Positions 9,173 to 24,831 of a stretch of 47,938 nt of DNA are shown in pieces. A program made the position numbers and the translations under genes. The notes beneath the pieces are model-generated. The model was not told where the DNA came from. It did no database searches and was given only the letters and a program-made list of their open reading frames with translations. The stretch's first letter is position 1, and every line of letters starts with the position of its first letter. Location of the stretch: positions 1-47,938 of the forward strand of contig JAIPBU010000031.1 in assembly GCA_021738535.1 (NCBI GenBank), given 5' to 3'. The DNA comes from Bacteroidales bacterium. GTDB lineage: Bacteria; Bacteroidota; Bacteroidia; Bacteroidales; VadinHA17.

Positions 9173-10564
9173 ATGGAAGTAGAAATTCTATCCAGGCTGC
9201 AATTTGCCTTCACTATTGCTTTTCACTATATCTACCCGCCCTTATCCATTGGTCTTGGGCTTCTAATGGTAATAATGGAAGGTATGTACCTGCGCACAGG
9301 TAACAAGGAATATGAAACGATGGCCCGTTTCTGGACCAGGATCTTTGCACTTACTTTTGCCATTGGCGTTGCCACAGGCATTGTTATGGAATTTGAATTC
9401 GGGACCAACTGGGCAAAATATTCGCGCTATGTGGGTGATGTTTTTGGCAGTGCACTGGCTGCGGAGGGTATTTTTGCCTTTGCGCTTGAGAGTGGATTCC
9501 TGGGTGTCCTGCTTTTCGGCTGGAACAAGGTAAAGCCCAAGGTGCATTTTATTGCTACCATCGGTGTGTTCATAGGGTCAGTATTCTCTGCCGTATGGAT
9601 AGTTGTGGCCAACAGCTGGCAGCAGACGCCTGCAGGTTATCATATTGTGGGTGAGGGTATGCAGGCACGTGCCGAGATAACTGATTTCTGGGCCATGGTC
9701 TTTAACCCTTCTTCAGTTGATCGTTTGCTGCATGTATGGATAGGAGCTTTCCTGGCAGGCGCTTTTCTTGTAATGAGTGTACATGCCTTTTACCTGTTGC
9801 GCGACCGTTACCTTAAGCTTTCACAAAGAACACTTAAGATAGCACTTGTGGTGGCTACTGTAGCTGCATTATTGCAGTTTGCCACGGGACACCAGTCGGC
9901 TGACGGTGTGGCAGAGAACCAGCCGGCCAAGCTGGCTGCCTTCGAGGGTCACTTTGAAGAGAGTGCCCCGGGCGATCTTTACCTTATTGGCTGGGTTGAT
10001 AAGGAAGCGCAGAAGGTGGTTGGGATCAAGTTGCCGGGCGGACTCAGTTTTCTTGTAGACTGGAATTTTACCACTCCCTTGCCGGGACTGAATGCCTTCC
10101 CGGAGGATGAGCGGCCAACAGCCATCAACACTATCTTCCAGTTTTACCATATAATGGTTGCCATTGGCCTGCTGCTGATTGCCATTACACTTTACGGAAC
10201 TATACAATGGTGGCGCGGCAAGATCTTTTACCAGCGCTGGTACCTCTGGGTACTGGTATTTTCAGTATTCCTGCCGCAGGTATCAAACCAGTTTGGCTGG
10301 TATGCTGCGGAGATGGGCAGGCAGCCCTGGGTTGTATGGGGACATCTGAAAACGGCTGATGCACTCTCTGAATCAGTGAGCGCGGGTAATGTGATTTTCT
10401 CACTGATCTTTTTCACCCTGGTGTACCTGTTGTTGTTTGTACTTTTTATTTACCTGCTGAATAAGAAGATAAAGAAAGGGCCTTATGATGAAAGCGATAT
10501 TGATGACAGGCTGAGGCTTAAAGATATAGCAGTTCAATTTGACAGTACTAAAAGTAAATCATAA
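9173..10564 (+). CDS. cydA: Cytochrome bd ubiquinol oxidase subunit I
   Basis: A 463-residue membrane subunit of the quinol:O2 oxidoreductase that carries hemes b558, b595 and d. It has H18 in AFHYIYPP (high-spin heme ligand), H187 in RLLHVWIG (b558 ligand), the acidic residues E98 and E106 of [14 protein letters not shown], the quinol-loop motif [11 protein letters not shown] and the GRQPW motif near the C-terminal third. It is shorter than the E. coli protein (about 520 residues) because the C-terminal half of the periplasmic Q-loop is missing, so it is the short-Q-loop type common outside gamma-proteobacteria. Hydrophobic segments fit nine membrane helices. cydB follows after 11 bp, so they are co-transcribed. 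Bd oxidases have high oxygen affinity and serve microaerobic growth and oxidative or nitrosative stress resistance. Confidence 0.97.
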
Positions 10565-10575
10565 ACTATTTGATC

Positions 10576-11610
10576 ATGCAGACCTTTCTGGGAATAGATT
10601 ATCCGACTATGTGGTTCCTGGTTGTGGGAGCCCTCTTTTCAGGTTATGCCATACTTGACGGGTTCGACCTGGGGGCAGGAGCCTGGCATCTTTTTCTGAA
10701 AGACGACAGGAGCCGCAGGATAGCTCTTAATGCTGTAGGCCCTGTATGGGACGGCAACGAGGTGTGGCTGGTCATTGGGGGAGGAGCTCTTTTTGCAGGC
10801 TTCCCCGAGGCTTATGCAACACTATTCTCTGCAATGTACATTCCTTTTATCCTTTTCCTGGGATTCCTGATTTTCAGGGCAGTATCAATAGAATTCAGGG
10901 GCAAGGAACCCATGAAATGGTGGCGTAATACCTGGGATGTCTGTTACAGCGTCTCCAGTGCAATGCTTGCCTTATTACTGGGTGTGGTGCTTGGTAATGT
11001 ACTGATGGGAATGAGTATGGACACTAACTTTATTTATACCGGTCACTGGCTGGAATTTCTTAATCCTTATTCCCTGCTGGTAGGGTTGCTGTCACTATCC
11101 CTTTTCATGGTGCATGGGGCTATATACCTTACCATGAAGACTGAAGGAAGGCTGTTTGAGAAAATTGCCCGATTGCTGAGGCGTTCCATTATTGTTTTCG
11201 TGGTTTTGTTTGTTATTGTTACGGTGGTTTCAATATTCTTCTATCCCCACCTGACAGACAGGTTTTTGAACAAGCCGGTCTTGTTTATTGTCCCTGCGCT
11301 TGCCTTTCTGAGTATAGCCAATGTGCCGCGCCTGGCCTCAATGGGTAAATATTTGCAGTCGTTTATCTTTTCCGCTCTGTCAATCAGTTTTATGTTGATT
11401 ATAGTAGCAATAGAGCTGTACCCTGTAGTATTACTCAACAGTGCAGGTATGGATGCCAGTATGAGCATATATGATGCTGCTTCATCAGAAAAGGCGCTGG
11501 GTATCATGCTTACAATAACCGCCATTGGTTTCCCGTTGGTAATAGCCTATACCATATTTGTATACCGTGCTTTCTGGGGCAAGGTGCAACTGGATGAGAC
11601 GAGTTATTAA
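10576..11610 (+). CDS. cydB: Cytochrome bd ubiquinol oxidase subunit II
   Basis: A 344-residue membrane subunit partnering CydA. The N terminus has TMWFLVVGALFSGYAILDGF followed by DLGAG, the CydB hallmark, then WDGNEVWLVIGGGALFAGFP, with about eight to nine predicted membrane helices. A TTG two codons earlier (10570) could also initiate, but the ATG at 10576 is preferred. No small CydX-like frame is seen downstream. The 3' end overlaps the end of the convergent TonB-dependent receptor gene: the two stop codons interlock at 11607-11610, leaving no intergenic room for a terminator. The cydC/cydD assembly transporter genes are not in the window. Confidence 0.97.
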   Translation: MQTFLGIDYPTMWFLVVGALFSGYAILDGFDLGAGAWHLFLKDDRSRRIALNAVGPVWDGNEVWLVIGGGALFAGFPEAYATLFSAMYIPFILFLGFLIFRAVSIEFRGKEPMKWWRNTWDVCYSVSSAMLALLLGVVLGNVLMGMSMDTNFIYTGHWLEFLNPYSLLVGLLSLSLFMVHGAIYLTMKTEGRLFEKIARLLRRSIIVFVVLFVIVTVVSIFFYPHLTDRFLNKPVLFIVPALAFLSIANVPRLASMGKYLQSFIFSALSISFMLIIVAIELYPVVLLNSAGMDASMSIYDAASSEKALGIMLTITAIGFPLVIAYTIFVYRAFWGKVQLDETSY

Positions 11611-16014: not shown

Positions 16015-17877
16015 TCAGCTAAGGTAGTTATTCATAAGAGACAGCAGCTCATTCTGAACGATTGGTTTTTTTATGTAAGCATTTGCACCGCTCTCCAGTA
16101 TTTTTTTCTCCTCTTCGCGCAAGGCATAAGCAGTTTGAGAGATAACAGGTACCTCACCGGAGATTTGCCTTATTCTCTGCAGAGCCTCATGTCCGTCCAT
16201 TATCGGCATCCTTATATCCAGGAGAATTAAATCCGGAATTTTTTTCTTCACCATCTCAACAAGCTTAACACCATTTTCGGCGTGTAAGATATTTACATTG
16301 GTGCTTTTCAGCAGCTCCTCCAGCAGCATGTATGAGTATATATCATCTTCTGCGATATATACGGTTTTATCTTTAAAGTCGGGGATATCATAAATCTCAT
16401 TCCTGGTATTTAGGTACAGTGTCTTTGATTTGGGTGTTTCATAGGGTATAATAAACCGGAAGGTAGTTCCTTTTCCTTCCTGGGATAATACCCAGATCTC
16501 ACCGCCCAGTATTTTCAGTATTCCTTTTGCAATGCTTAGTCCAAGTCCTGTGCCGTCGCTTTTCATATCGTTATCTATCTGGCGGAAGCGATCGAAGATA
16601 ATTTTTTGTTCTTTCGCGGACATCCCCACCCCGGTATCCCGGATACTGAACTGTATAAAGTTGCCTTCATCATTATAGAACTGTGAATAACTTACTTCTA
16701 TAAATCCTTTATCTGTAAACTTTAATGCATTGCTGATGAGGTTATCGATTACCTGGGACAGCCTCTTTCTGTCGGTAAAAAGTTTCACATCACCGGATGG
16801 TATACTGCTTTTAAGCCTAAGTTCAACATCCGGTTTTTGTTTCTTCAGATTTGATTCTTCATGCTTCCTGATAATTTCCTGGAGCATCCCGTTTAGTTCG
16901 AACCATTCTTTTTCAATATGAAGCTGGTTTGCATCTAACCTGGCAATATCCAGGATATCGTCTATTATTCTCAGTAGCTGGGCCCCGGAGTTTTGAATTA
17001 TATCAACATAGCTGCTTTTATCCTCTTCATTGATTTCAGGATCAACCAGCAGATCTGAGAATCCCATTATTGCGTTCATTGGAGTACGAATCTCATGGCT
17101 CATATTGGAAAGGAAGGCAGATTTAAGCCTGTCGCTTTCCTCAGCTTTCTGCATTGCCTCATGCAATTTATTTTCATAATTCATACGTTCGGTAATATCC
17201 CGTACAGAGACGAGAGTCATCTCTTCATTCTCCCATCTTATATTTACCATTCTCAGTTCACCTGTCCTTGACTTTTCTTTGCCTCCGAATGTTTGTATTT
17301 CAGCACTTTCCCTGCCAATAACAGGGTAGCCAAATTCCATATTGAGCAATGTAGATTCAGGTTGATTAAACATCCTGTCTGCTGCGGGATTAGAAAAGTG
17401 TATCACACCTTCCCTGTCAATAATCAGGATACCGTCATAGACTGTTTCTGTTATCTTCCTGAATCTTGCTTCACTCTCAACAAGATCATCGATAGTGCCC
17501 TTAAGCCTCATAAAGGAGTTTATCCTTGCTACTAACTCCTTATTGTGTATGGGTTTGGTCAGAAATCCGTCTGCTCCATTATCCAGGCCTGCGGATTTAT
17601 CGTCAGTTGTTTTATGTACTGATGACATAAGTACAACAAAGATATCCGAGGTCTCAGGGTCGGCTTTAATTATTTTCAAAAGATCAATTCCGTTTGTATC
17701 GGGAAGGACAATATCAAGTAAGACAAGAGCAATTTTTTCTTGTTTAATAATCTTCATGCCTTCATTGCCTGACTCTGCCGAAAAGACACTATAACCTTCC
17801 TTCTTCAGAATTCTTGAATATGCATTCAGGAGGTGTTTATTATCCTCAACAACCAGGATATTTTTTGGTGCTGCCAT
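16015..17877 (-). CDS. Hybrid histidine kinase REC-PAS-HisKA-HATPase-REC (Kai operon)
   Basis: A 620-residue soluble hybrid kinase. The N-terminal receiver has D55 in LVLLDIVLP and Lys in LTKPI. A PAS domain (about 135-235) begins FRKITETVYDGILIIDREG. HisKA has H261 in NMSHEIRTPMNAIMG, the ATPase has N-box NLISNALKF and G-box DGTGLGLSIAKG, and a second receiver has D554 in LILLDIRMP and KKPI near the end. I place the start at MAAPKNILVVEDN because it follows the kaiC stop after 1 bp (TAA-T-ATG). The longer frame to 17925 would run back into kaiC. There is no membrane segment, so it senses a cytoplasmic signal or is phosphorylated by another kinase. Last in the operon, it is the likely output or integrator of the Kai module. 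Its own output partner is not encoded nearby. Confidence 0.93.
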   Translation of the reverse strand: MAAPKNILVVEDNKHLLNAYSRILKKEGYSVFSAESGNEGMKIIKQEKIALVLLDIVLPDTNGIDLLKIIKADPETSDIFVVLMSSVHKTTDDKSAGLDNGADGFLTKPIHNKELVARINSFMRLKGTIDDLVESEARFRKITETVYDGILIIDREGVIHFSNPAADRMFNQPESTLLNMEFGYPVIGRESAEIQTFGGKEKSRTGELRMVNIRWENEEMTLVSVRDITERMNYENKLHEAMQKAEESDRLKSAFLSNMSHEIRTPMNAIMGFSDLLVDPEINEEDKSSYVDIIQNSGAQLLRIIDDILDIARLDANQLHIEKEWFELNGMLQEIIRKHEESNLKKQKPDVELRLKSSIPSGDVKLFTDRKRLSQVIDNLISNALKFTDKGFIEVSYSQFYNDEGNFIQFSIRDTGVGMSAKEQKIIFDRFRQIDNDMKSDGTGLGLSIAKGILKILGGEIWVLSQEGKGTTFRFIIPYETPKSKTLYLNTRNEIYDIPDFKDKTVYIAEDDIYSYMLLEELLKSTNVNILHAENGVKLVEMVKKKIPDLILLDIRMPIMDGHEALQRIRQISGEVPVISQTAYALREEEKKILESGANAYIKKPIVQNELLSLMNNYLS

Positions 17878-17878
17878 A

Positions 17879-19387
17879 TTATTTGTTATCTGATTCGAAC
17901 ATATTGTCAATACGTGATATTTCACTACCTATATTGGACTGAACGAGTCGGCCGGAGATAATTCCGGATACTTCCTTGAACGGTTTGCCTATATGCATCC
18001 CGCTGCTGTCGATCATGAACTCGCGTATATGTTTTTCATGTGCTGATCCTCTCATTTTAAGTACTGTAATGCCTCTCCTCATATCTCCGTAAGTTTCAAC
18101 ATATCTTAAGAGAATAATGCTATCTGTAATAGTAGAAATATGGGCGTCAGTAATAGTTGTTCCGCCCATCAGGTCAGAGGTTGTAGAGGTAAAGAGTCCG
18201 GCTATCTCCTGGGTCTTTATGAAGGAGTTCAGTCCGATCACGAATTCCCGGAATCCGCGGGGTGTGGATATGCGTTCAAGGGCTGACAGGCTGTCTATTG
18301 CCACCCTGTTGGGTTTAAACTCCGATATAATTGCTTTAATATGTATCAGGTGATCTTCCAGTCCTGCCGATTCTGGGTATTCGCAGACAACTTTCAGTTT
18401 TTCATCCTTTTCCATCTTCTCAAAATCAATTCCCCACCCGCTGGCATTCCTGAACAACTGCTGCCTGCTCTCTTCAAAAGCAAAGAGAAGGCATCTTTCA
18501 TTGTTCTTTACTCCTCCTGCCATAAATTCAGTGGCAGTAAGAGTTTTTCCCGTCCCTGTAGCTCCTGAGAGCAGTATAATGGAATCCCGGAAGAATCCTC
18601 CTCCGCACATATTATCAAGAGCTTTGTTCCCGGAGCTTATTCTTTTTTCGGATGATTCCTGGTCGAGCTTAATATTTGAAAGAGGTATGATAACGAGTCC
18701 TTCCCCGGGAATGATGGTGAAAGGATATTCCCCTTTCCTGTGCATAGTACCACGGAATTTTAATATTTCAACTGTCCGTCTGCGTTTTTCTTCTTCCAGT
18801 ATATTCCTGAAAATAATAACATTATCAGCAACAAACTCCTCGACTCCAAATCGGGCTATTTCTCCGTATTCTTCTGTTCGTTCGGCTGTCATTACAGCTG
18901 TTACATTCATCTGTTTAATGGAATAGGCAATCTTAAAGAGTTCACTCCTGATAGTATTGGCATCAGTGAACTGTGTAAAGATGGCGCCCAGGGAGTCGAG
19001 TGAAATTCTTTTTGCCCCGATTTTTGTGACTGCATGTTCAATTCTTGCCATCAGGGCTGCCAGGTCAAATTCACCTATTATTACAGGAGCCTCACCTGGT
19101 TGTGGGGAAGCATCAACAAACCTCCACCGGTTATTCTTTTCCAGTTTTTCGATATCCCAGCCCAATCCAATCATATTACGCCGTATATCTGCCGGTGATT
19201 CCTCGAAAGTAACAAATACGCCATTTTCATTATTCCTGGTAATACCTTCATACAGGTACTGGGCTGCAAATACTGTTTTCGCACTGCCTGCCGTACCTGA
19301 CACAAGAGTTGTTCTGCCTTCGGGTAAACCTCCATGGGAAACATGATCAAATCCCGGTATGAAGGTTGGAAGCTTTTTGATATCCAT
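17879..19387 (-). CDS. kaiC: KaiC, double-domain circadian-clock-type ATPase/autokinase
   Basis: A 502-residue protein with two RecA-like KaiC domains. CI has Walker A GTAGSAKT (31-38) and the catalytic Glu pair E62-E63. CII has Walker A GATGTGKT (275-282) and E305-E306. The CII phosphorylation loop reads TDAHISTITD, giving S418 and T419 at the positions of S431 and T432 of Synechococcus KaiC, with the equivalent of T426 (T413) also kept. The C-terminal tail keeps GIISG and SEISRI, comparable with the A-loop and KaiA-binding tail. In cyanobacteria KaiC hexamers cycle through phosphorylation under KaiA and KaiB. kaiB lies 25 bp upstream and a KaiA-like regulator precedes that. Many bacterial KaiC-like proteins are not clock parts, but retention of both phosphosites with KaiB is suggestive. 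Confidence 0.95.
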   Translation of the reverse strand: MDIKKLPTFIPGFDHVSHGGLPEGRTTLVSGTAGSAKTVFAAQYLYEGITRNNENGVFVTFEESPADIRRNMIGLGWDIEKLEKNNRWRFVDASPQPGEAPVIIGEFDLAALMARIEHAVTKIGAKRISLDSLGAIFTQFTDANTIRSELFKIAYSIKQMNVTAVMTAERTEEYGEIARFGVEEFVADNVIIFRNILEEEKRRRTVEILKFRGTMHRKGEYPFTIIPGEGLVIIPLSNIKLDQESSEKRISSGNKALDNMCGGGFFRDSIILLSGATGTGKTLTATEFMAGGVKNNERCLLFAFEESRQQLFRNASGWGIDFEKMEKDEKLKVVCEYPESAGLEDHLIHIKAIISEFKPNRVAIDSLSALERISTPRGFREFVIGLNSFIKTQEIAGLFTSTTSDLMGGTTITDAHISTITDSIILLRYVETYGDMRRGITVLKMRGSAHEKHIREFMIDSSGMHIGKPFKEVSGIISGRLVQSNIGSEISRIDNMFESDNK

Positions 19388-19412
19388 TGTTATATACGTT
19401 AAAAATTAAATA

Positions 19413-19682
19413 TTACTTATTAATATATCCCAGTATTTTCTCAGAATCTGAAAAATCACCAATTAACCTCTTCACCGGTGGCGGTATTTTTTTTATCAAT
19501 GTTGGTGTTGCAAGTATTTTTGCTTTTTCTGCTTCTTCCGGTGAATCAAGTACATCGATCACTGTTAAGCTGAAGTCACCACCCAGGTTCTCTTCGCACA
19601 TTTTTCTCAGGTTTGTGATTGCCTGTTCTGACCTGGATGAATTACTTGTTATGTATAATTCAAGGACATATTTATTGCTCAT
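19413..19682 (-). CDS. kaiB: KaiB clock protein
   Basis: An 89-residue thioredoxin-like KaiB. It has the N-terminal strand YVLELYITSNSSRSEQAI, the VIDVLDSPEEAEKAKILATP core and TLIKKIPPPVKRLIGDFSD, matching cyanobacterial KaiB almost residue by residue in the KILATPTL and IGD-SD-EK segments. The start is the ATG at 19682. A longer frame reaching 19832 would lie inside the upstream regulator gene and lacks KaiB character. The start overlaps the end of that regulator by 11 bp, indicating translational coupling. KaiB refolds and binds the CI ring of KaiC, sequesters KaiA and controls SasA/CikA-type kinases in cyanobacteria. Being a free KaiB rather than the KaiB-like domain of a SasA kinase, it is expected to interact directly with the KaiC encoded next to it. 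Confidence 0.96.
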   Translation of the reverse strand: MSNKYVLELYITSNSSRSEQAITNLRKMCEENLGGDFSLTVIDVLDSPEEAEKAKILATPTLIKKIPPPVKRLIGDFSDSEKILGYINK

Positions 19683-20496
19683 GATTAAAAATATTTCGGT
19701 TTCTGTAAATTGTAACCAGGTATCCCATAATTTCCAGTAGTATGAAACGGGCTTCTTCGTGAAACAAAGCCAGCTTCCTGGAAGATATAGCCCTGTCTGT
19801 TTTGCTGAAGAACAGGGAGTGAATTCTAACAAGGTCTTTTGGCCCAGCCTTTAAAAACCCCAATCTGCTTGCAAAGTCTTTCCTGAGGTCTGTGTCAGCA
19901 GCCCCTGTTTTGTATATTCTTGCTTCAACTGCTCTTTTAATTATTTCAGCGTATTTATCAGTTAGTTCTTCTACTAAGTCACTGCCGGGATCTGATAAAA
20001 CCGAGACCTCGTATGCTGATTGTGTAACAGTAGTATCTGAGCCGGACATTATTTTCCATTCTGAAAGTTCACGTTGTTGGACTTTTTTCTCATTTTCAAT
20101 TCGTTTTCGTTCAATTCTTTGGACTGCAAAAATCACCCTGGTTTTTGAAACAAGATCGGTCATAGAGAAAGGTTGGTAAAGGAAGTCTACTGCTTCAAAG
20201 TCATCCTCTTCAATGTCGTCATAAGGATTTGTTTTTTCTCCTGACATCAGGATAAAGGGTTGACTTTCAGAGCCAGGGGTGCTTGTTATTTCTCTGGCCA
20301 GGTCAAGACCACTGCCATCAGGCAGTACTATGTCGATTAACAGCAGATCGGGATTCTCTTTTCTGAAAGATTCTTTACCTTTCTTAAGGGATCTGGCTTC
20401 TTGTACTATATAGCCGGCTTTATCAAGTGCTCTTGAAATTGCTGAGAGTAGTTCTTGATTGTCTTCAATTATTAATATTTTTTTCTTATCGCTCAA
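19672..20496 (-). CDS. Response regulator with KaiA-like C-terminal domain (candidate KaiA3-type protein)
   Basis: A 274-residue protein. The receiver (about 5-125) has E11-D12 and the phosphoacceptor D55 in LLLIDIVLPDGSG. The conserved receiver Lys before the Pro is replaced by Gln (FLYQPF). After a linker (about 125-170), the last 100 residues are helical with DLVEELTDKYAEIIKRA, LRKDFASRLGF, DLVRIH and FILLEIMGYLVTIYR. By eye this follows, with nearly equal length, the KaiA C-terminal domain that binds the KaiC tail (pattern Y-x3-L, DF-V-LFF, EIHMDLMD, DYRLTLIDVIAHLCEMYR). It also resembles the related RsbU N-terminal domain. Synechocystis KaiA3 has the same receiver plus KaiA-C plan. The location directly before kaiB, with an 11-bp overlap, supports a KaiA role. 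The family match is my reading, not a computed hit. Confidence 0.75.
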   Translation of the reverse strand: MSDKKKILIIEDNQELLSAISRALDKAGYIVQEARSLKKGKESFRKENPDLLLIDIVLPDGSGLDLAREITSTPGSESQPFILMSGEKTNPYDDIEEDDFEAVDFLYQPFSMTDLVSKTRVIFAVQRIERKRIENEKKVQQRELSEWKIMSGSDTTVTQSAYEVSVLSDPGSDLVEELTDKYAEIIKRAVEARIYKTGAADTDLRKDFASRLGFLKAGPKDLVRIHSLFFSKTDRAISSRKLALFHEEARFILLEIMGYLVTIYRNRNIFNHEQ

Positions 20497-20508
20497 ACTT
20501 TATCTACG

Positions 20509-21714
20509 TTAATAAGTATTTTTAACAGGCAGTTCAACAAAAAAGCTCGTTCCTTTGCCGGGTTCACTTTCCAGCCATATTTTTCCTTTATGAGCTTCAA
20601 CAATTCGTTTCACTATAGCAAGTCCCAGCCCCGTGCTCTTTTCTCCTTCAGTACCTGCGGATGATGTTGTTTCAAAAGGGGTAAAAATTCTTTCCTGGTC
20701 TTCTTTTTGTATTCCTTTACCTGAATCTTTTACAGTGATCATGACATTATCAGGTAGCGGTTCAATTTTCACTTCTATTTTACTGCCCGGATAAGAAAAT
20801 TTTATTGCATTACCTATGAGGTTTGAAAGAACCTGGTCAATCTTGTAGCGGTCAGCCGTAATTAACAGGCTCTGGTCTGAGTGCACATAGTTAATGGCGA
20901 TCTGCTTTTTGGCCGCAATAGTATTAAGTGAATCAACCAGCTTTCCAGTTTTTTCAATTATGTCAAATTCTGCTTTATTGAGCGTTACTTTGCCTGATTC
21001 AACCCGGGTGTAATCAAGCAGCTCTTCAACCAGGTTAAGCATAAAGGCTGTTGATTCATTTATTGTATGAATAAAGCCCATATGTTCTTCTTCAAGATCT
21101 TCAGCTGCTTCTTCGATAAGGAATTCTGAGTAATTAAGAATGATGCCCAGCGGATTGCGCAGGTCGTGGGCTGCCATTCCCATAAAGTTATTCTTTAATT
21201 CGTTCAGCCTTTCCAGCTCTGCATTCTTCCTGTTCAGCTCCCTCTGCAGGTTAACAAGTTCATTATTCAGGTGGGTTATCTCATCAAAATTTTTTTCGGT
21301 ATCGTCATTCTCCTTGTTATCAGACATGAAGTCCTTCTTAAGCAGTTCGCGAAGGAGGTTGGTTTGTTCATTGTTTATCTCCTGCAGGTGGTTGGTAAAC
21401 TCCATGGCTTCTTTATGGTTATCAGCACCAATAATGAGCATTTCATTGCCCAGGTGAACCCCGATGAAATAGAAGCTTATCAGTTTATTCTTTATATTAA
21501 CCGGTAAGCGGTGGTCGAAGGAAATTTTTTTCTGTCTTATCTCCAGAAGGAAATTCATTGCCCGGTTCCTTGCATCAGCTTCCACCAGGTTTGAAAACAA
21601 CCTTCCTGACAGGTTTTGCCCTGACAAACCAAAGTCATCACGAAGAATTTCACGAATTACTCCTGAATCATCGCACAGCAGTGCAAAGCCCTTTACCGTT
21701 GAATATTCACTCAT
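20509..21714 (-). CDS. PAS-like sensor histidine kinase (Kai operon)
   Basis: A 401-residue soluble kinase. Residues 5-105 form a PAS-like domain (FALLCDDSGVIREILRDDFG). A coiled coil runs over about 135-178, with repeated Glu/Leu/Asn heptads. HisKA carries H183 in AAHDLRNPLGIILNYSEF. The ATPase has N-box LIGNAIKF, G1 DSGKGI, F-box FTPFE and G2 GLGLAIVKRI. There is no membrane helix and no KaiB-like domain, so it is not a SasA ortholog despite its position. The gene starts 5 bp after the B12-protein stop and ends 12 bp before the KaiA-like regulator. The simplest model is that it phosphorylates that regulator in response to the cobalamin protein. The wiring is inferred from gene order only. 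Confidence 0.93.
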   Translation of the reverse strand: MSEYSTVKGFALLCDDSGVIREILRDDFGLSGQNLSGRLFSNLVEADARNRAMNFLLEIRQKKISFDHRLPVNIKNKLISFYFIGVHLGNEMLIIGADNHKEAMEFTNHLQEINNEQTNLLRELLKKDFMSDNKENDDTEKNFDEITHLNNELVNLQRELNRKNAELERLNELKNNFMGMAAHDLRNPLGIILNYSEFLIEEAAEDLEEEHMGFIHTINESTAFMLNLVEELLDYTRVESGKVTLNKAEFDIIEKTGKLVDSLNTIAAKKQIAINYVHSDQSLLITADRYKIDQVLSNLIGNAIKFSYPGSKIEVKIEPLPDNVMITVKDSGKGIQKEDQERIFTPFETTSSAGTEGEKSTGLGLAIVKRIVEAHKGKIWLESEPGKGTSFFVELPVKNTY

Positions 21715-21719
21715 TATAT

Positions 21720-22787
21720 TTAGTTCGTAACAAGTCTGTTAGCGTGTTCTACTGCTGCAAGAGCATTTGGGGCCCATCCATCAGCATCAAAGCCTTCAAT
21801 ATTTGAATTCTTATTTATTGCAGTACCTCCAATCATTATTTTAACATTTTTCCCCATGTTACTCTTCCTTATTGTTGATATTGTCTCCTTCAATAGGTTC
21901 CTGTGGAAGGGCATTGCAATAGACAGTGCTATCATATCAGCTTCATTTTCCTCGGCTGCTTTCATGATTGTGGCAGCAGGTGAATTGGCGCCAAGATAGT
22001 AAGTATCCCAGCCCTCCATCTCAAAGAAGTCAGCTACCATCCTTATTCCAAGCTCATGCAGTTCACCTCCCACACAGGCAGCAACCATTTTTCTGCCAAT
22101 ACGCTCAGCTGAGAAGATATGCTGGTAAAGCTGAGACATTATCATTTGTGTAGCTGCTGAGCAATAGTGTTCTTTTGCAACACTTATCCGGTTTGAAAGC
22201 CACAACCTGCCAATTTCATACTGGGATTTCTGAAAAACTTCAAGGTAGATATCTTTTATTGAGATACCGTTTGCCAGGGCATCGTGAATCATTTTGCCTG
22301 CAAGGTTACGGTTCCCGTCAAGCAGGGCTTCATTATATTTTTTGGCAAGCTTCCCTATCTCTGTTGATTCATCGATAAAGGCTTCCTGCTCATCTACATC
22401 CTGCATCATCTGATCTATGCCTGCCTCAATAAATGGCAGGGTTATATTATAAAGATCTTCAGTAAATTCCTCTTTCAGGACTACAGCTGTACATTCCAGT
22501 GTTTTTATCATTACCGAGTCTTTGAAGTTCAGTCCCCTGAATAGCACCTTGACCCATGCAACGTAATCGGTGAAGATGGATTTATCGCCGGCCACCACTG
22601 CTTCTCCCAGGAAAGGAAGATGGTATGCTGCATCCCTGAGGCTCAGCTCCCTGCCTGAGGCTCCGAATTTATTCCAGTATTCAGGAGAGAGGCTGTACTG
22701 CATGTCAACTATTTTTTCTGCATAGTGTGCACTGTTTACACTGAGCAGAAATTTAATTTTTTCCCGTGGATCTTCCATAATAGGCAT
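21720..22787 (-). CDS. Cobalamin-binding protein with W-x9-EH photoreceptor signature
   Basis: A 355-residue protein. The N-terminal helical domain (about 15-130) has RELSLRDAAYHLPFLGEAVV. I know it only as a region found in some B12-binding proteins. A helical B12-cap domain covers about 140-225 and a Rossmann-type B12-binding domain about 230-352, with E242-L-H244-E-L-G247 (lower-ligand E-x-H-x-x-G type) and GG at 320-321. The cap has W196 followed after nine residues by E206-H207, the W-x9-EH pattern of CarH-type adenosylcobalamin light sensors. There is no MerR DNA-binding domain, so it must signal through protein contact, most simply to the kinase 5 bp downstream. A second ATG three codons in (MEDPREK) is an alternative start. 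It is first in the operon, preceded by a candidate promoter and two inverted repeats. Confidence 0.9.
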   Translation of the reverse strand: MPIMEDPREKIKFLLSVNSAHYAEKIVDMQYSLSPEYWNKFGASGRELSLRDAAYHLPFLGEAVVAGDKSIFTDYVAWVKVLFRGLNFKDSVMIKTLECTAVVLKEEFTEDLYNITLPFIEAGIDQMMQDVDEQEAFIDESTEIGKLAKKYNEALLDGNRNLAGKMIHDALANGISIKDIYLEVFQKSQYEIGRLWLSNRISVAKEHYCSAATQMIMSQLYQHIFSAERIGRKMVAACVGGELHELGIRMVADFFEMEGWDTYYLGANSPAATIMKAAEENEADMIALSIAMPFHRNLLKETISTIRKSNMGKNVKIMIGGTAINKNSNIEGFDADGWAPNALAAVEHANRLVTN

Positions 22788-22889: not shown

Positions 22890-23129
22890 GATTTTGGCAA
22901 GGCCTAAATCGGCTGATGAAAAGATGGTTGGTAAGCGGACTGCTCCCCCTGACGATCCTCCTGACGTCGGTTGTCAGGGCTCGCGATCCGGTAGTGGGGA
23001 GACTTTCAACAAAATCCTCATTTTGGCCTTGCCAAAATCGGGGATTTTTTGTGTGGGTGCTCGTTCATATACATATGACTCACCCCACACAAAAAATCCC
23101 CGGCGCTTTCAGCGCTGAGGATTTTGTTG
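22890..23129. repeat. Nested inverted-repeat region next to tRNA-Cys
   Basis: This gene-free stretch is built of nested repeats. The outer 15-bp arms are at 23006-23020 (TCAACAAAATCCTCA) and 23116-23130. The inner 18-bp arms are GGGGATTTTTTGTGTGGG at 23040-23057 and its complement at 23084-23101. Small hairpins lie within each arm (TTTTGGC-CTT-GCCAAAA at 23021-23037 and GCGCT-TTC-AGCGC). A further 15-bp copy, GATTTTGGCAAGGCC at 22890-22904, is complementary to 23025-23039. On the minus strand the structure begins at the 3' end of tRNA-Cys, so it could be its terminator or a small non-autonomous element. No coding sequence is supported here; frames across it are repeat-derived. Confidence 0.7.
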
Positions 23130-23200
23130 AGGTCGGTAGCGGATTCGAACCGCCGTACGCGGTTTTGCAGACCACTGCCTAGCCACTCGGCCAACCGACC
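23130..23200 (-). tRNA. tRNA-Cys (GCA)
   Basis: A complete cloverleaf on the minus strand: acceptor GGTCGGT pairing with ACCGACC, D-stem GCC/GGC, anticodon stem GTGGT/ACCGC (one G-U pair) around loop CTGCAAA with anticodon GCA, T-arm GGCGG-TTCGAAT-CCGCT. Discriminator base U73 is the known identity element for Cys. CCA is not encoded. The 3' base is also the first base of a long inverted repeat. Confidence 0.95.
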
Positions 23201-23308: not shown

Positions 23309-23371
23309 TTCGAACCGCCGTACGCGGTTTTGTCCCGAGTACTCGGGACCTGGCCACTCGGCCAACCGACC
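23309..23371 (-). pseudogene. Broken tRNA-Cys copy with palindrome replacing the anticodon arm
   Basis: The 24-bp T-arm/variable segment (23309-23332) and the 19-bp D-arm/acceptor segment (23353-23371) are identical to the intact tRNA-Cys. The anticodon arm is replaced by the perfect palindrome TCCCGAGTACTCGGGA (23333-23348), and the 3' acceptor strand is lost. It cannot fold as a functional tRNA. A second palindrome of similar style, CCCCG-ATTACA-CGGGG, flanks it at 23288-23303. The rest of 23201-23308 shows nothing recognisable. Confidence 0.8.
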
Positions 23372-23538: not shown

Positions 23539-24831
23539 ATGAAAGACAATTATCCTGACCTGGAAGGCAAAGCTGTTCCGGAATATTTTAAAAAACGAAT
23601 CAGGAGCGCAGCTGAATTGAAACGTCTTATGCCTTACAGGGAAGCAGGGCAGGGTGACCTGGGAAAATCTTTGAATAGTGAGCCGCATGATACCGGCGCC
23701 TGCATTTATATTCATGTCCCTTTTTGTAACAATTCCTGTAGCTTCTGTGGTTATTATAAATGCCTGAACCCTCACAGGGGGCTGGTAGATGCATTTACGG
23801 AGCAGGTGAAAAATGACCTGGAATATCTTTCAGGTATGCCATGGGTGGCTAAGAATAAATTCAGGGCAGTGTATTTTGGCGGAGGAACGCCAAGCTCTTT
23901 GCCTTCAGGTAGTTTTTTTGATATGGTTGACTTAATCAGCCGCGAATTTAATCTTTCAGAAGATTGCGAAATAAGTTTTGAGTCAACTATTTCTGACCTG
24001 GATGAGGAATACCTCGAAGGACTTGGGAAGAGCAGTGTTAACAGGGTTAGCCTTGGGATCCAGTCATTCGATGATAAAGTTCGTAAAAAGAATTCGCGCA
24101 TTTCAGGCACAGATGATATAAGGGATACAATAAGGGGCCTGCGCAGTGCAGGAATAAGCAATATATGTGCTGATTTGATGTACAATATTAAAGGACAAAC
24201 TGTTGATTCATGGCAATCGGACCTGGAAATGATACGTAAGCTGGGACTCAATGGAGCAAGTGTTTATCCTCTTATCCCATTCCCGGGGTCACCTATGGTT
24301 GTGAAAGGTGATTACAGCGAAGCCGAACCGGCGGACGAATACAGGTATTTTGCTATGGCTGATCAGTCGCTACTCTCCATCCCGGGATGGAAATATTACA
24401 CCCCGGTTCAGTATGGTCATTACAAGACAGGTAAGGCAGGGTATGTTGTATCCCAGGCTGATAATGCGGATATACTTGCTATAGGTCCGGGTGCAGGAGG
24501 CAGGATAAATGAAATACAGTATCTGAATACATATACGGTTGAAGATTATGCAATACCCGGGACTTTCCCGAGGCGCAAAATGAAAATAAGCTCAATGGGG
24601 CCGGCTTACAGGGCTGTTGAAAGAAAACTGAGTTTATTCAGGAAAACCAGTGAATATGTTGATAGCCTGGAAGAAGCATATGCAGATGATCATGATTTCC
24701 TGGAATTTTTGCTAAAGAACTCTTTCATCAGGTATGCAAAAAATGAGATCAGCCTTACCAGAACAGGACGTTACTGGTCCGGCAACTTAGCCTCCCTTGC
24801 AACAGGTCATAACCGCCAGCTTAATGTTTAG
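23539..24831 (+). CDS. Coproporphyrinogen III oxidase-like radical SAM protein (HemN/HemW/HutW family)
   Basis: A 430-residue radical SAM enzyme with the 4Fe-4S motif C63-x3-C67-x2-C70 (CNNSCSFC), the FGGGTPSSL SAM-binding strand, ESTISDLDEEYL, RVSLGIQSFDD and the AIGPGAGG segment that parallels GxGAG of HemN-type proteins. Family members oxidise coproporphyrinogen III (HemN), chaperone heme (HemW) or open heme anaerobically (HutW/ChuW). The unusual N-terminal 50 residues and the PLIPFPGSPM region make me favour the HutW-like side, without certainty. No heme-uptake genes adjoin it. A clear GGAGG at 23525-23529, 9 nt before the ATG, is a strong Shine-Dalgarno, unusual next to its neighbours. 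It is monocistronic and ends 53 bp from the convergent GH5 gene. Confidence 0.85.
   Translation: MKDNYPDLEGKAVPEYFKKRIRSAAELKRLMPYREAGQGDLGKSLNSEPHDTGACIYIHVPFCNNSCSFCGYYKCLNPHRGLVDAFTEQVKNDLEYLSGMPWVAKNKFRAVYFGGGTPSSLPSGSFFDMVDLISREFNLSEDCEISFESTISDLDEEYLEGLGKSSVNRVSLGIQSFDDKVRKKNSRISGTDDIRDTIRGLRSAGISNICADLMYNIKGQTVDSWQSDLEMIRKLGLNGASVYPLIPFPGSPMVVKGDYSEAEPADEYRYFAMADQSLLSIPGWKYYTPVQYGHYKTGKAGYVVSQADNADILAIGPGAGGRINEIQYLNTYTVEDYAIPGTFPRRKMKISSMGPAYRAVERKLSLFRKTSEYVDSLEEAYADDHDFLEFLLKNSFIRYAKNEISLTRTGRYWSGNLASLATGHNRQLNV

What the first reader, a model, noticed from the sequence alone, without database searches (positions are those of the whole stretch)
16015..22787. Six-gene operon coupling a candidate B12 photoreceptor, histidine kinases and a KaiA-like/KaiB/KaiC module in a Bacteroidota genome
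Seen: six minus-strand genes packed with gaps of 1-25 bp and one 11-bp overlap, in the order B12 protein, PAS-like kinase, receiver plus KaiA-like domain, KaiB, KaiC, REC-PAS-HK-REC. Known: KaiA/B/C make the cyanobacterial post-translational clock, and W-x9-EH cobalamin proteins of the CarH type sense light. Inference: the operon encodes a light- or redox-entrained timer with its own input (B12 protein and kinase) and output (hybrid kinase), in an organism with no photosynthesis genes in the window. I know of no described system with this exact composition.
Basis: partly seen in the sequence, partly recalled or inferred. Interest (0 to 1): 0.95.

Follow-up and report, generated by a model that had tools for sequence, protein, structure and literature searches.

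The report
Light-sensor operon for a KaiABC clock
An apparently non-photosynthetic bacterium carries one row of six genes that joins a predicted vitamin-B12 light sensor and a histidine kinase to relatives of the cyanobacterial clock proteins, so light would probably set its internal timer directly.

The parts
21720..22787 (-). photocobilin-like protein, 355 aa: N-terminal phycobiliprotein/photoglobin-fold domain + C-terminal B12-binding photosensory domain
22398..22778 (-). globin/phycobiliprotein-like domain (residues 4-130); D52 and W78 fall on the bilin-pocket residues D270 and W296 of SasPcob
   Evidence: profile match to smURFP E 5e-8 and allophycocyanins E about 1e-6; D52/W78 from the second alignment block, numbering from PMC10979010
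21729..22364 (-). B12-binding domain (residues 142-353): GxxW196, E206-H207, GxxH244, GxxxP270
   Evidence: the four light-response signatures of PMC11796333 are all present in the window protein
20509..21714 (-). HK1, histidine kinase, 401 aa (HisKA 174-241, HATPase 288-398; N-terminal 160 aa unassigned)
   Evidence: an HK1-like kinase directly follows the B12 protein in L040, L041, L108, L117, L037, L038 and in 15 of 15 of L119-L133
19672..20496 (-). receiver-KaiA-like protein, 274 aa; phosphoacceptor candidate D55
   Evidence: Response_reg E 2e-18; AF2 pLDDT 85
19699..20004 (-). KaiA C-terminal-like four-helix domain (residues 165-266)
   Evidence: family profile: two KaiA structures lead the 12 PDB matches (E 0.027, 0.029) and 7 of the 12 are labelled KaiA; hhalign to 29 KaiA C-domains E 1.5e-4 for this single comparison, probability 52%, score 30.2 versus at most 17.1 in 40 column shuffles
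19413..19682 (-). KaiB, 89 aa
   Evidence: Pfam KaiB E 2e-24; PDB KaiB E 1e-21
17879..19387 (-). KaiC, 502 aa, two ATPase domains, T413/S418/T419 at the T426/S431/T432 positions, C-terminal tail present
   Evidence: NCBIfam circ_KaiC 649 bits, cut-off 546; PDB KaiC 715 bits; motifs
16015..17877 (-). hybrid kinase REC-PAS-HisKA-HATPase-REC, 620 aa, candidate output or feedback kinase
   Evidence: a REC-first protein also follows KaiC or KaiB in L040, L041, L045, L108 and L150, but in general it is rare after KaiC: 2 of 59 loci, L040 and L082, in a test that needs an uncut kinase domain
23539..24831 (+). HutW/ChuW-like radical-SAM protein, divergent neighbour (possible anaerobic bilin source; not part of the operon)
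   Evidence: TIGR04107 E 2e-71, 241 bits, below the 400-bit cut-off; 36% identical homologue directly upstream of the photocobilin in L117

Best explanation
This six-gene operon encodes a photocobilin-like protein, a histidine kinase, a receiver-KaiA-like protein, KaiB, KaiC and a hybrid kinase, and is predicted to be a light-set KaiC timer in which light would act through the kinase on the receiver of the KaiA-like protein. Steps: (1, inferred from fold and residues) the B12 domain, with adenosylcobalamin, senses green light, and the phycobiliprotein-like domain may add a bilin for red light; (2, inferred) photolysis changes the photocobilin's assembly and so the activity of its partner kinase HK1, a kinase gene being next downstream in every full-length case whose neighbourhood I read; (3, inferred, supported by covariation) HK1 phosphorylates D55 of the receiver-KaiA protein; (4, by analogy to KaiA3) this changes how the KaiA-like domain stimulates KaiC autophosphorylation, while KaiB opposes it; (5, weakest) the REC-PAS-HK-REC protein passes the KaiC state to the cell or feeds back. 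Whether the result is a self-sustained oscillator or a light-reset hourglass cannot be said from sequence.
For: Photocobilin: sequence, AF2 + structure alignment, four light signatures and the D270/W296 equivalents in the window protein. Core: KaiC, KaiB, KaiA-like domain; KaiC 70-71% identical to Roseiflexus KaiC, a genus in which KaiA3B3C3 synteny was reported. Unit: same order in L040 (all six) and L041 (sixth gene cut by the contig end, begins with REC); photocobilin-kinase beside kai genes also in L090, L092, L093, L108, L150. Kinase-to-receiver step: a kinase within 1.1 kb upstream of 28 of 36 KaiA-like proteins with the Asp and 0 of 21 without, Fisher 2.6e-9; clustered at 45% identity 8 both, 3 Asp only, 0 kinase only, 5 neither, p 0.026; within 400 bp 15 of 36 against 0 of 21, p 3.5e-4. 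Recurrence with another photoreceptor: the kinase overlapping the KaiA-like gene start in L087 is a bacteriophytochrome, PHY E 3e-34. No Photo_RC gene in 10 of 10 kai-bearing non-Chloroflexi genomes tested, own included; both Chloroflexi in the same search had it.
Against: No light response, B12 or bilin binding, KaiC phosphorylation or rhythm has been measured. Photocobilins are a minority: 3 of the 46 KaiA-like loci with at least 3.5 kb before the gene (L092 and L093 have one with less room). In the 395-genome Bacteroidota sample only 1 of the 16 other genomes with such a B12 protein has a kai gene (kaiB alone) beside it. L106, a Bacteroidota kai locus, has no photocobilin or kinase next to KaiA-like; the pair lies elsewhere in that genome, its kinase split over two frames. 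Covariation: the 1.1-kb limit was set after I had seen the distances; 13 of the 28 kinases lie 428-1022 bp away, and in 11 of these a single receiver gene stands between, which may be the true partner; 16 of the 21 Asp-less proteins form one Chloroflexota cluster. No heme oxygenase in 27 of 27 genomes tested, so the bilin half may be empty. SasPcob's H137 is T273 here. The receiver's usual conserved Lys position reads Gln (YQPF), Lys in two close relatives.
Confidence: 0.55

Rival explanations
1. The photocobilin and HK1 form a general light-signalling pair whose main target is the hybrid kinase or another regulator; kai genes are carried along and only tuned by it, so light does not directly set KaiC.
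For: Photocobilin-HK1 pairs without kai neighbours are the rule in the Bacteroidota sampled; further histidine kinases lie beside several such pairs (L038, L160, L164).
Against: Photocobilin-kinase pairs stand beside kai genes in four phyla, and upstream kinases were seen only with Asp-bearing KaiA-like proteins.
Confidence: 0.27
2. The B12 protein senses cobalamin status or redox/oxygen rather than light, and the KaiC module is a metabolic or stress timer.
For: No heme oxygenase in 27 of 27 genomes tested; cytochrome bd-type oxidase genes lie in the same window at 9173-11610, so the host may live at oxic-anoxic borders. Across 23 homologues the G of the GxxH signature is kept in only 15 and the P of GxxxP in 22.
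Against: W, E, H and the lower-ligand H are kept in 23 of 23 homologues, the bilin-pocket Trp in 23 and Asp in 22; the window protein has all four published light signatures.
Confidence: 0.15
3. [quoted passage not shown]
For: Single-sequence Pfam scan of the window domain finds nothing; RsbU_N (3 of 44 members) and KaiA (2 of 44) match about equally weakly; the fold searches were filled by the receiver and did not test it.
Against: Profile-profile E 1.5e-4 to KaiA with shuffle controls; KaiA entries lead the PDB list; the domain is found in 59 of 69 KaiC loci and is followed by kaiB and kaiC in 53 of these 59.
Confidence: 0.1

Closest known systems
KaiA3-KaiB3-KaiC3 system (Synechocystis; PMC11372060, 2024, abstract and passages read)
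   Same: Receiver + KaiA-like chimera, then kaiB and kaiC; phosphoacceptor Asp kept; synteny reported outside cyanobacteria (orthologues in Roseiflexus, Chloroflexus, Chloroherpeton, Rhodospirillum, Bradyrhizobium)
   Different: Bacteroidota host; the receiver matches PhoB/OmpR-class models best, where the paper describes a NarL-type one; a photocobilin and its kinase lie upstream, whereas the paper says no cognate kinase has been identified
Photocobilins (SasPcob, AbPcob; PMC10979010, 2024; abstract, section 9, first part of section 7 and passages read)
   Same: B12 domain + phycobiliprotein-like globin domain, W-x9/10-EH, His lower ligand, D270/W296 equivalents
   Different: Domain order reversed (globin first; the paper already reports N- or C-terminal placements), stand-alone protein paired with a histidine kinase
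CarH (MerR-type B12 photoreceptor)
   Different: No MerR DNA-binding domain; the residue after W is L, not the H132 of CarH (H132 recalled and named in PDB titles)
Canonical cyanobacterial KaiABC with CikA/SasA
   Same: KaiB and two-domain KaiC with S/T phosphosites; KaiA C-domain. PMC11372060 also says that CikA of Synechocystis, unlike that of Synechococcus, is a true photoreceptor, so a light-sensing kinase near a Kai clock has a precedent
   Different: True receiver instead of a pseudo-receiver in the KaiA-like protein; photoreceptor candidate and kinase in one operon with the Kai core
KaiB-KaiC hourglass type (Rhodobacter, 8db3/8dba) and KaiC2-like loci of other Bacteroidia
   Same: KaiB and KaiC present
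   Different: Window KaiC is only 34-41% identical to the KaiC of the 18 other genomes with a match in a 395-genome class sample, most of which have a longer frame and two kaiB beside it; 309 bits to Rhodobacter KaiC against 715 for the best PDB KaiC

Membership tests
photocobilin | B12-binding domain with W-x9/10-EH, E/DxH lower ligand | tested here: met
   W196, E206, H207, E242xH244; W, E, H, H invariant in a 42-sequence alignment
photocobilin | fused phycobiliprotein-like globin domain | tested here: met
photocobilin | bilin-pocket Asp (D270) and Trp (W296) | tested here: met
   D52 and W78 by the alignment; Trp in 23 of 23 and Asp in 22 of 23 rows printed
photocobilin | binds AdoCbl and biliverdin, light changes oligomer | not testable with these tools
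   needs protein
KaiA3-KaiB3-KaiC3 system | receiver domain with phosphoacceptor Asp + KaiA-like C-terminal domain | tested here: met
   the KaiA part by sequence profile only
KaiA3-KaiB3-KaiC3 system | receiver of NarL type | tested here: inconclusive
   NCBIfam best matches are PhoB, CseB, YycF; NarL models were not compared directly
KaiA3-KaiB3-KaiC3 system | synteny kaiA3-kaiB3-kaiC3 | tested here: met
   same order in 53 of the 59 loci with a KaiA-like gene
KaiA3-KaiB3-KaiC3 system | KaiC of the KaiC3 clade | tested here: inconclusive
   70-71% to Roseiflexus KaiC; no labelled KaiC1/2/3 cyanobacterial set was in the tree
KaiA3-KaiB3-KaiC3 system | circadian KaiC phosphorylation cycle in vitro | not testable with these tools
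   needs protein
CarH | MerR-type DNA-binding domain | tested here: not met
   no such domain in the Pfam scan; the N-terminus has the phycobiliprotein fold
HutW/ChuW (radical-SAM neighbour) | TIGR04107 above curated cut-off | tested here: not met
   241 bits against 400; nearly full-length match, the best of three in the genome

The most novel reading that the evidence does not exclude
A complete photoreceptor-to-clock phosphorelay in non-photosynthetic bacteria: light excites a dual-chromophore photocobilin (B12 plus an oxygen-independent bilin made by a HutW-like radical-SAM enzyme), which switches a dedicated kinase that phosphorylates a KaiA3-type receiver and so resets a self-sustained KaiABC oscillator; different photoreceptor kinases (photocobilin-HK1, bacteriophytochrome) have been plugged into this same receiver port in different phyla.
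Probability: 0.22. Interest if true: 0.93.

Novelty: new variant of a known kind. Interest (0 to 1): 0.81.

Why it matters
[quoted passage not shown] This operon names a candidate kinase with a candidate photoreceptor in front of it, shows that upstream kinases accompany only Asp-bearing KaiA receivers in the set examined, and finds a second photoreceptor kinase type in the same place. [quoted passage not shown] A dedicated photoreceptor wired to a Kai core in bacteria without photosynthesis would suggest that light-set timing is useful, and has been assembled more than once, outside phototrophs. It is directly testable with six proteins that have no predicted role for a membrane. I found no paper that describes the combination in the searches; the 2022 photoglobin paper, the one most likely to mention it, was not held.

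Tried and rejected
Rejected: CarH-type reading of the B12 protein (no MerR domain, phycobiliprotein-fold N-terminus). Rejected: methyltransferase corrinoid protein (the NCBIfam corrinoid models are all far below their cut-offs; full light signature kept). Rejected: one shared origin of all kai-linked photocobilins; on a quick tree they need at least 5 changes of the label, with the caveat that the 18 database proteins in it have unknown neighbourhoods and count as unlinked. Rejected as a strong claim: the HutW-like enzyme as the general bilin source; at E<=1e-40 it is in only 2 of 27 genomes tested, though beside the photocobilin in both, and in 1 of 395 sampled Bacteroidota.

The promoter and terminator scan found 23 promoter-like sites (shuffles 17.9, sd 3.8) and 9 terminator-like ones (7.1, sd 2.1). 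The careful KaiC tree did not finish; the quick one is cited. A 22-genome scan with TIGR04107 rings in every genome and in 14 of 14 controls through HemN/HemW relatives, so presence counts from it mean nothing. Only one reaction-centre family (PF00124) was looked for; type I centres (PF00223) and rhodopsins were not. The count with a 400-bp limit came first (15 of 59 KaiA-like proteins); the 1.1-kb limit was chosen after it.
Full report
What is there. Six minus-strand genes run from 22787 down to 16015: a 355-aa B12 protein, a 401-aa histidine kinase (HK1), a 274-aa receiver protein with an unassigned C-terminus, KaiB (89 aa), KaiC (502 aa) and a hybrid kinase REC-PAS-HisKA-HATPase-REC. Gaps are 5, 12, -11, 25 and 1 bp once KaiB is started at ATG 19682 and the hybrid kinase at ATG 17877 (starts placed by eye). 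The genome is a 3.43-Mb assembly in 61 contigs, 94.7% complete; the window is one whole contig. Close copies of the receiver-KaiA and B12 proteins (95-96%) exist in other sequence sources.

The Kai core. KaiC passes NCBIfam's circadian KaiC cut-offs, has both Walker motifs, the EE pairs and T413/S418/T419, and is 75% identical to KaiC of L040 and 70-71% to Ignavibacteriaceae and Roseiflexus KaiC. In a 395-genome class sample, 18 genomes besides this one have KaiC at E<=1e-60; theirs is 34-41% identical, mostly with a longer frame, and beside two kaiB in 15 of 19 loci. The receiver protein's C-terminus: with a profile of 44 relatives, KaiA structures are the top two PDB matches (E 0.027, 0.029), and 7 of 12 matches with E up to 10 are labelled KaiA; profile-profile comparison with 29 KaiA C-domains gives E 1.5e-4 (single comparison), probability 52%, score 30.2, against a maximum of 17.1 in 40 column shuffles and 15.7 reversed. 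Single-sequence Pfam scans are not informative. An iterated HMM finds the domain in 59 of 69 KaiC loci; in 53 of these 59 kaiB and kaiC follow on the same strand. This is the architecture that PMC11372060 named KaiA3 (abstract and passages read). In the order sample of 295 genomes, only the own genome and G103 gave a match that covers this domain (E<=1e-15).

Conservation of the cluster. A scan of genome contigs with the window + L032 KaiC alignment returned 69 loci. The six-gene order is complete in L040 (Bacteroidales MAG labelled Tobar13.5m; the same contig as G103/L032) and present in L041 (Ignavibacteriaceae; last gene cut, starts with REC). L045 (Ignavibacteriaceae) starts inside the kinase. 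L090, L092 (cut) and L093 (Planctomycetales) have photocobilin, kinase, KaiA-like and KaiC without a kaiB hit. L108 (Opitutia) has photocobilin, HK1, KaiB, a KaiC reading frame with a large internal loss, and a REC-first hybrid kinase. A profile of photocobilins finds these 6 loci (L040, L041, L090, L092, L093, L108) and no more among the 69 (L045 cannot be judged); of the 46 KaiA-like loci with at least 3.5 kb before the gene, 3 have one. In a 395-genome Bacteroidota sample 17 genomes, own included, match the B12 protein at E<=1e-50; of the 16 others, 14 match over both domains and two (G786, G351) over the B12 domain only. An HK1-like kinase follows in 15 of the 16, not in the short stretch seen for G351. 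One of the 16 (G1038, L150) has photocobilin-HK1-KaiB-hybrid kinase, without KaiA or KaiC in the 18 kb read; the other 15 show no kai gene (G351 only). On a quick KaiC tree the photocobilin-linked loci fall in two groups, window + L040 + L041 + L045 (SH-aLRT 93; L045 placed with them on the strength of its neighbours) and the Planctomycetales (99). On a photocobilin tree the kai-linked ones need at least five label changes (18 of 41 rows are database proteins of unknown context, scored unlinked). So the pair has probably been joined to kai genes, or lost from them, more than once.

Evidence for the kinase-to-receiver step. Of 62 KaiA-like proteins (61 + window), 57 have at least 1.5 kb before them; 5 were dropped (L045, L054, L081, one of L086, L100). 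A kinase ORF on the same strand ends within 1.1 kb upstream for 28 of 36 with Asp at the D55 column and for 0 of 21 without it (Fisher 2.6e-9). Sixteen of the 21 are one Chloroflexota cluster, so I also clustered at 45% identity: 8 clusters with both, 3 with Asp only, 5 with neither, 0 with kinase only (p 0.026). The 1.1-kb limit was set after the distances had been seen; with 400 bp it is 15 of 36 against 0 of 21 (p 3.5e-4), and in 11 of the 13 more distant cases a separate single receiver gene stands between kinase and KaiA-like gene, so there the kinase may act on that receiver. The Asp column depends on the alignment; another alignment of 47 proteins (44 of them from the loci) gave 13 non-Asp rows, all non-Asp too. 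Ten of the 28 kinases were scanned (three more): L087's, from a MAG labelled Cyanobacteria SZAS-4, is PAS_2-GAF-PHY-HisKA-HATPase, a bacteriophytochrome; it overlaps the KaiA-like gene by 22 bp, the pair lying on the strand opposite to kaiB-kaiC, and its genome lacks Photo_RC. L106 (Bacteroidetes) has the Asp but no neighbouring kinase; its genome carries photocobilin and HK1 on another contig, HK1 split over two frames.

Mechanism. PMC10979010 reports that light-triggered conversion of B12 alters photocobilin quaternary structure and activates associated enzyme domains, and proposes regulation through protein contacts (abstract and section 9). Applied here: light changes the photocobilin, the photocobilin changes HK1, HK1 sets phosphorylation of the KaiA-like receiver, and this tunes KaiC. 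The first two steps rest on homology and gene pairing, the third on gene order and the Asp covariation, the fourth on the KaiA3 precedent. The output through the hybrid kinase is a guess from position.

Bilin supply. PF01126 heme oxygenase is absent from 27 of 27 genomes tested, with 3 of 14 control genomes positive. Of these 27, 23 have a B12 protein seen over both domains; G023, G786 and G351 match in the B12 domain only, and in G713 (L045) it was not seen. A HutW/ChuW-like radical-SAM gene (TIGR04107 241 bits, cut-off 400) is the divergent neighbour here, and a 36% identical homologue lies directly upstream of the photocobilin in L117, the genome of L106. At E<=1e-40 it is found in 1 of 395 sampled genomes (own) and 2 of the 27 (G000, G716). 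Two different arrangements of so rare a gene beside the same protein suggest a link, perhaps an oxygen-free route to a linear tetrapyrrole (ChuW is cited in PMC10151467, passage read), but 25 of 27 lack it, so the bilin may be imported, made otherwise, or absent.

Novelty. The core is a KaiA3-KaiB3-KaiC3-type system and the sensor a photocobilin-type protein, both known; the joining of the two by a dedicated kinase, its recurrence over phyla, and the kinase-Asp covariation were not found in print in my searches. Earlier work noted histidine kinases near kaiC in many bacteria, mostly downstream (PMC3164672, passages read), and a review cites diel expression and kai genes in mat-dwelling non-photosynthetic Bacteroidota (PMC10173096, passages read). 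The 2022 photoglobin paper could not be read. I file it as a new variant of a known kind.

Noticed in passing
window 23539-24831 and L117 2569-3882: Rare HutW/ChuW-like radical-SAM gene flanks the photocobilin in two kai-bearing Bacteroidota in different arrangements; possible anaerobic bilin source.
   Followed up: partly
window 23129-23200 and 23309-23371: tRNA-Cys next to the operon's 5' side, with a partial second copy of it (24-nt and 23-nt blocks, 100% and 96%) about 165-171 bp away; looks like a tRNA-linked insertion or duplication scar.
   Followed up: no
L150 7091-12388: Photocobilin-HK1-KaiB-hybrid kinase with no KaiA or KaiC in the 18 kb read: possibly a KaiB that works without KaiC nearby.
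   Followed up: partly
L108 2981-3310: KaiC reading frame in an Opitutia MAG that keeps the first about 67 residues and the C-terminal tail but lacks the middle; natural or assembly artefact unknown.
   Followed up: no
L087 6488-9443: Bacteriophytochrome kinase directly upstream of a receiver-KaiA-like gene in a MAG labelled Cyanobacteria SZAS-4, without Photo_RC in its genome.
   Followed up: partly
L053 8616-13369: Helarchaeota MAG contig with a receiver-KaiA-like gene and two KaiB-KaiC pairs, i.e. a KaiA3-type cluster on a contig labelled archaeal.
   Followed up: no
L088, L089, L090, L092, L093: Planctomycetal clusters with KaiA-like and KaiC but no kaiB hit in these five loci.
   Followed up: no
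Magnetococcales loci L065-L084 and others: A single-domain receiver gene stands between the kinase and the KaiA-like gene in 11 of 13 loci with a distant kinase (L053, L065, L067, L069, L076, L078, L079, L080, L083, L084, L103).
   Followed up: partly
window 22890-23130: Nested inverted repeats (20, 19 and 15 nt, 95-100% complementary) between the operon's 5' end and tRNA-Cys.
   Followed up: no
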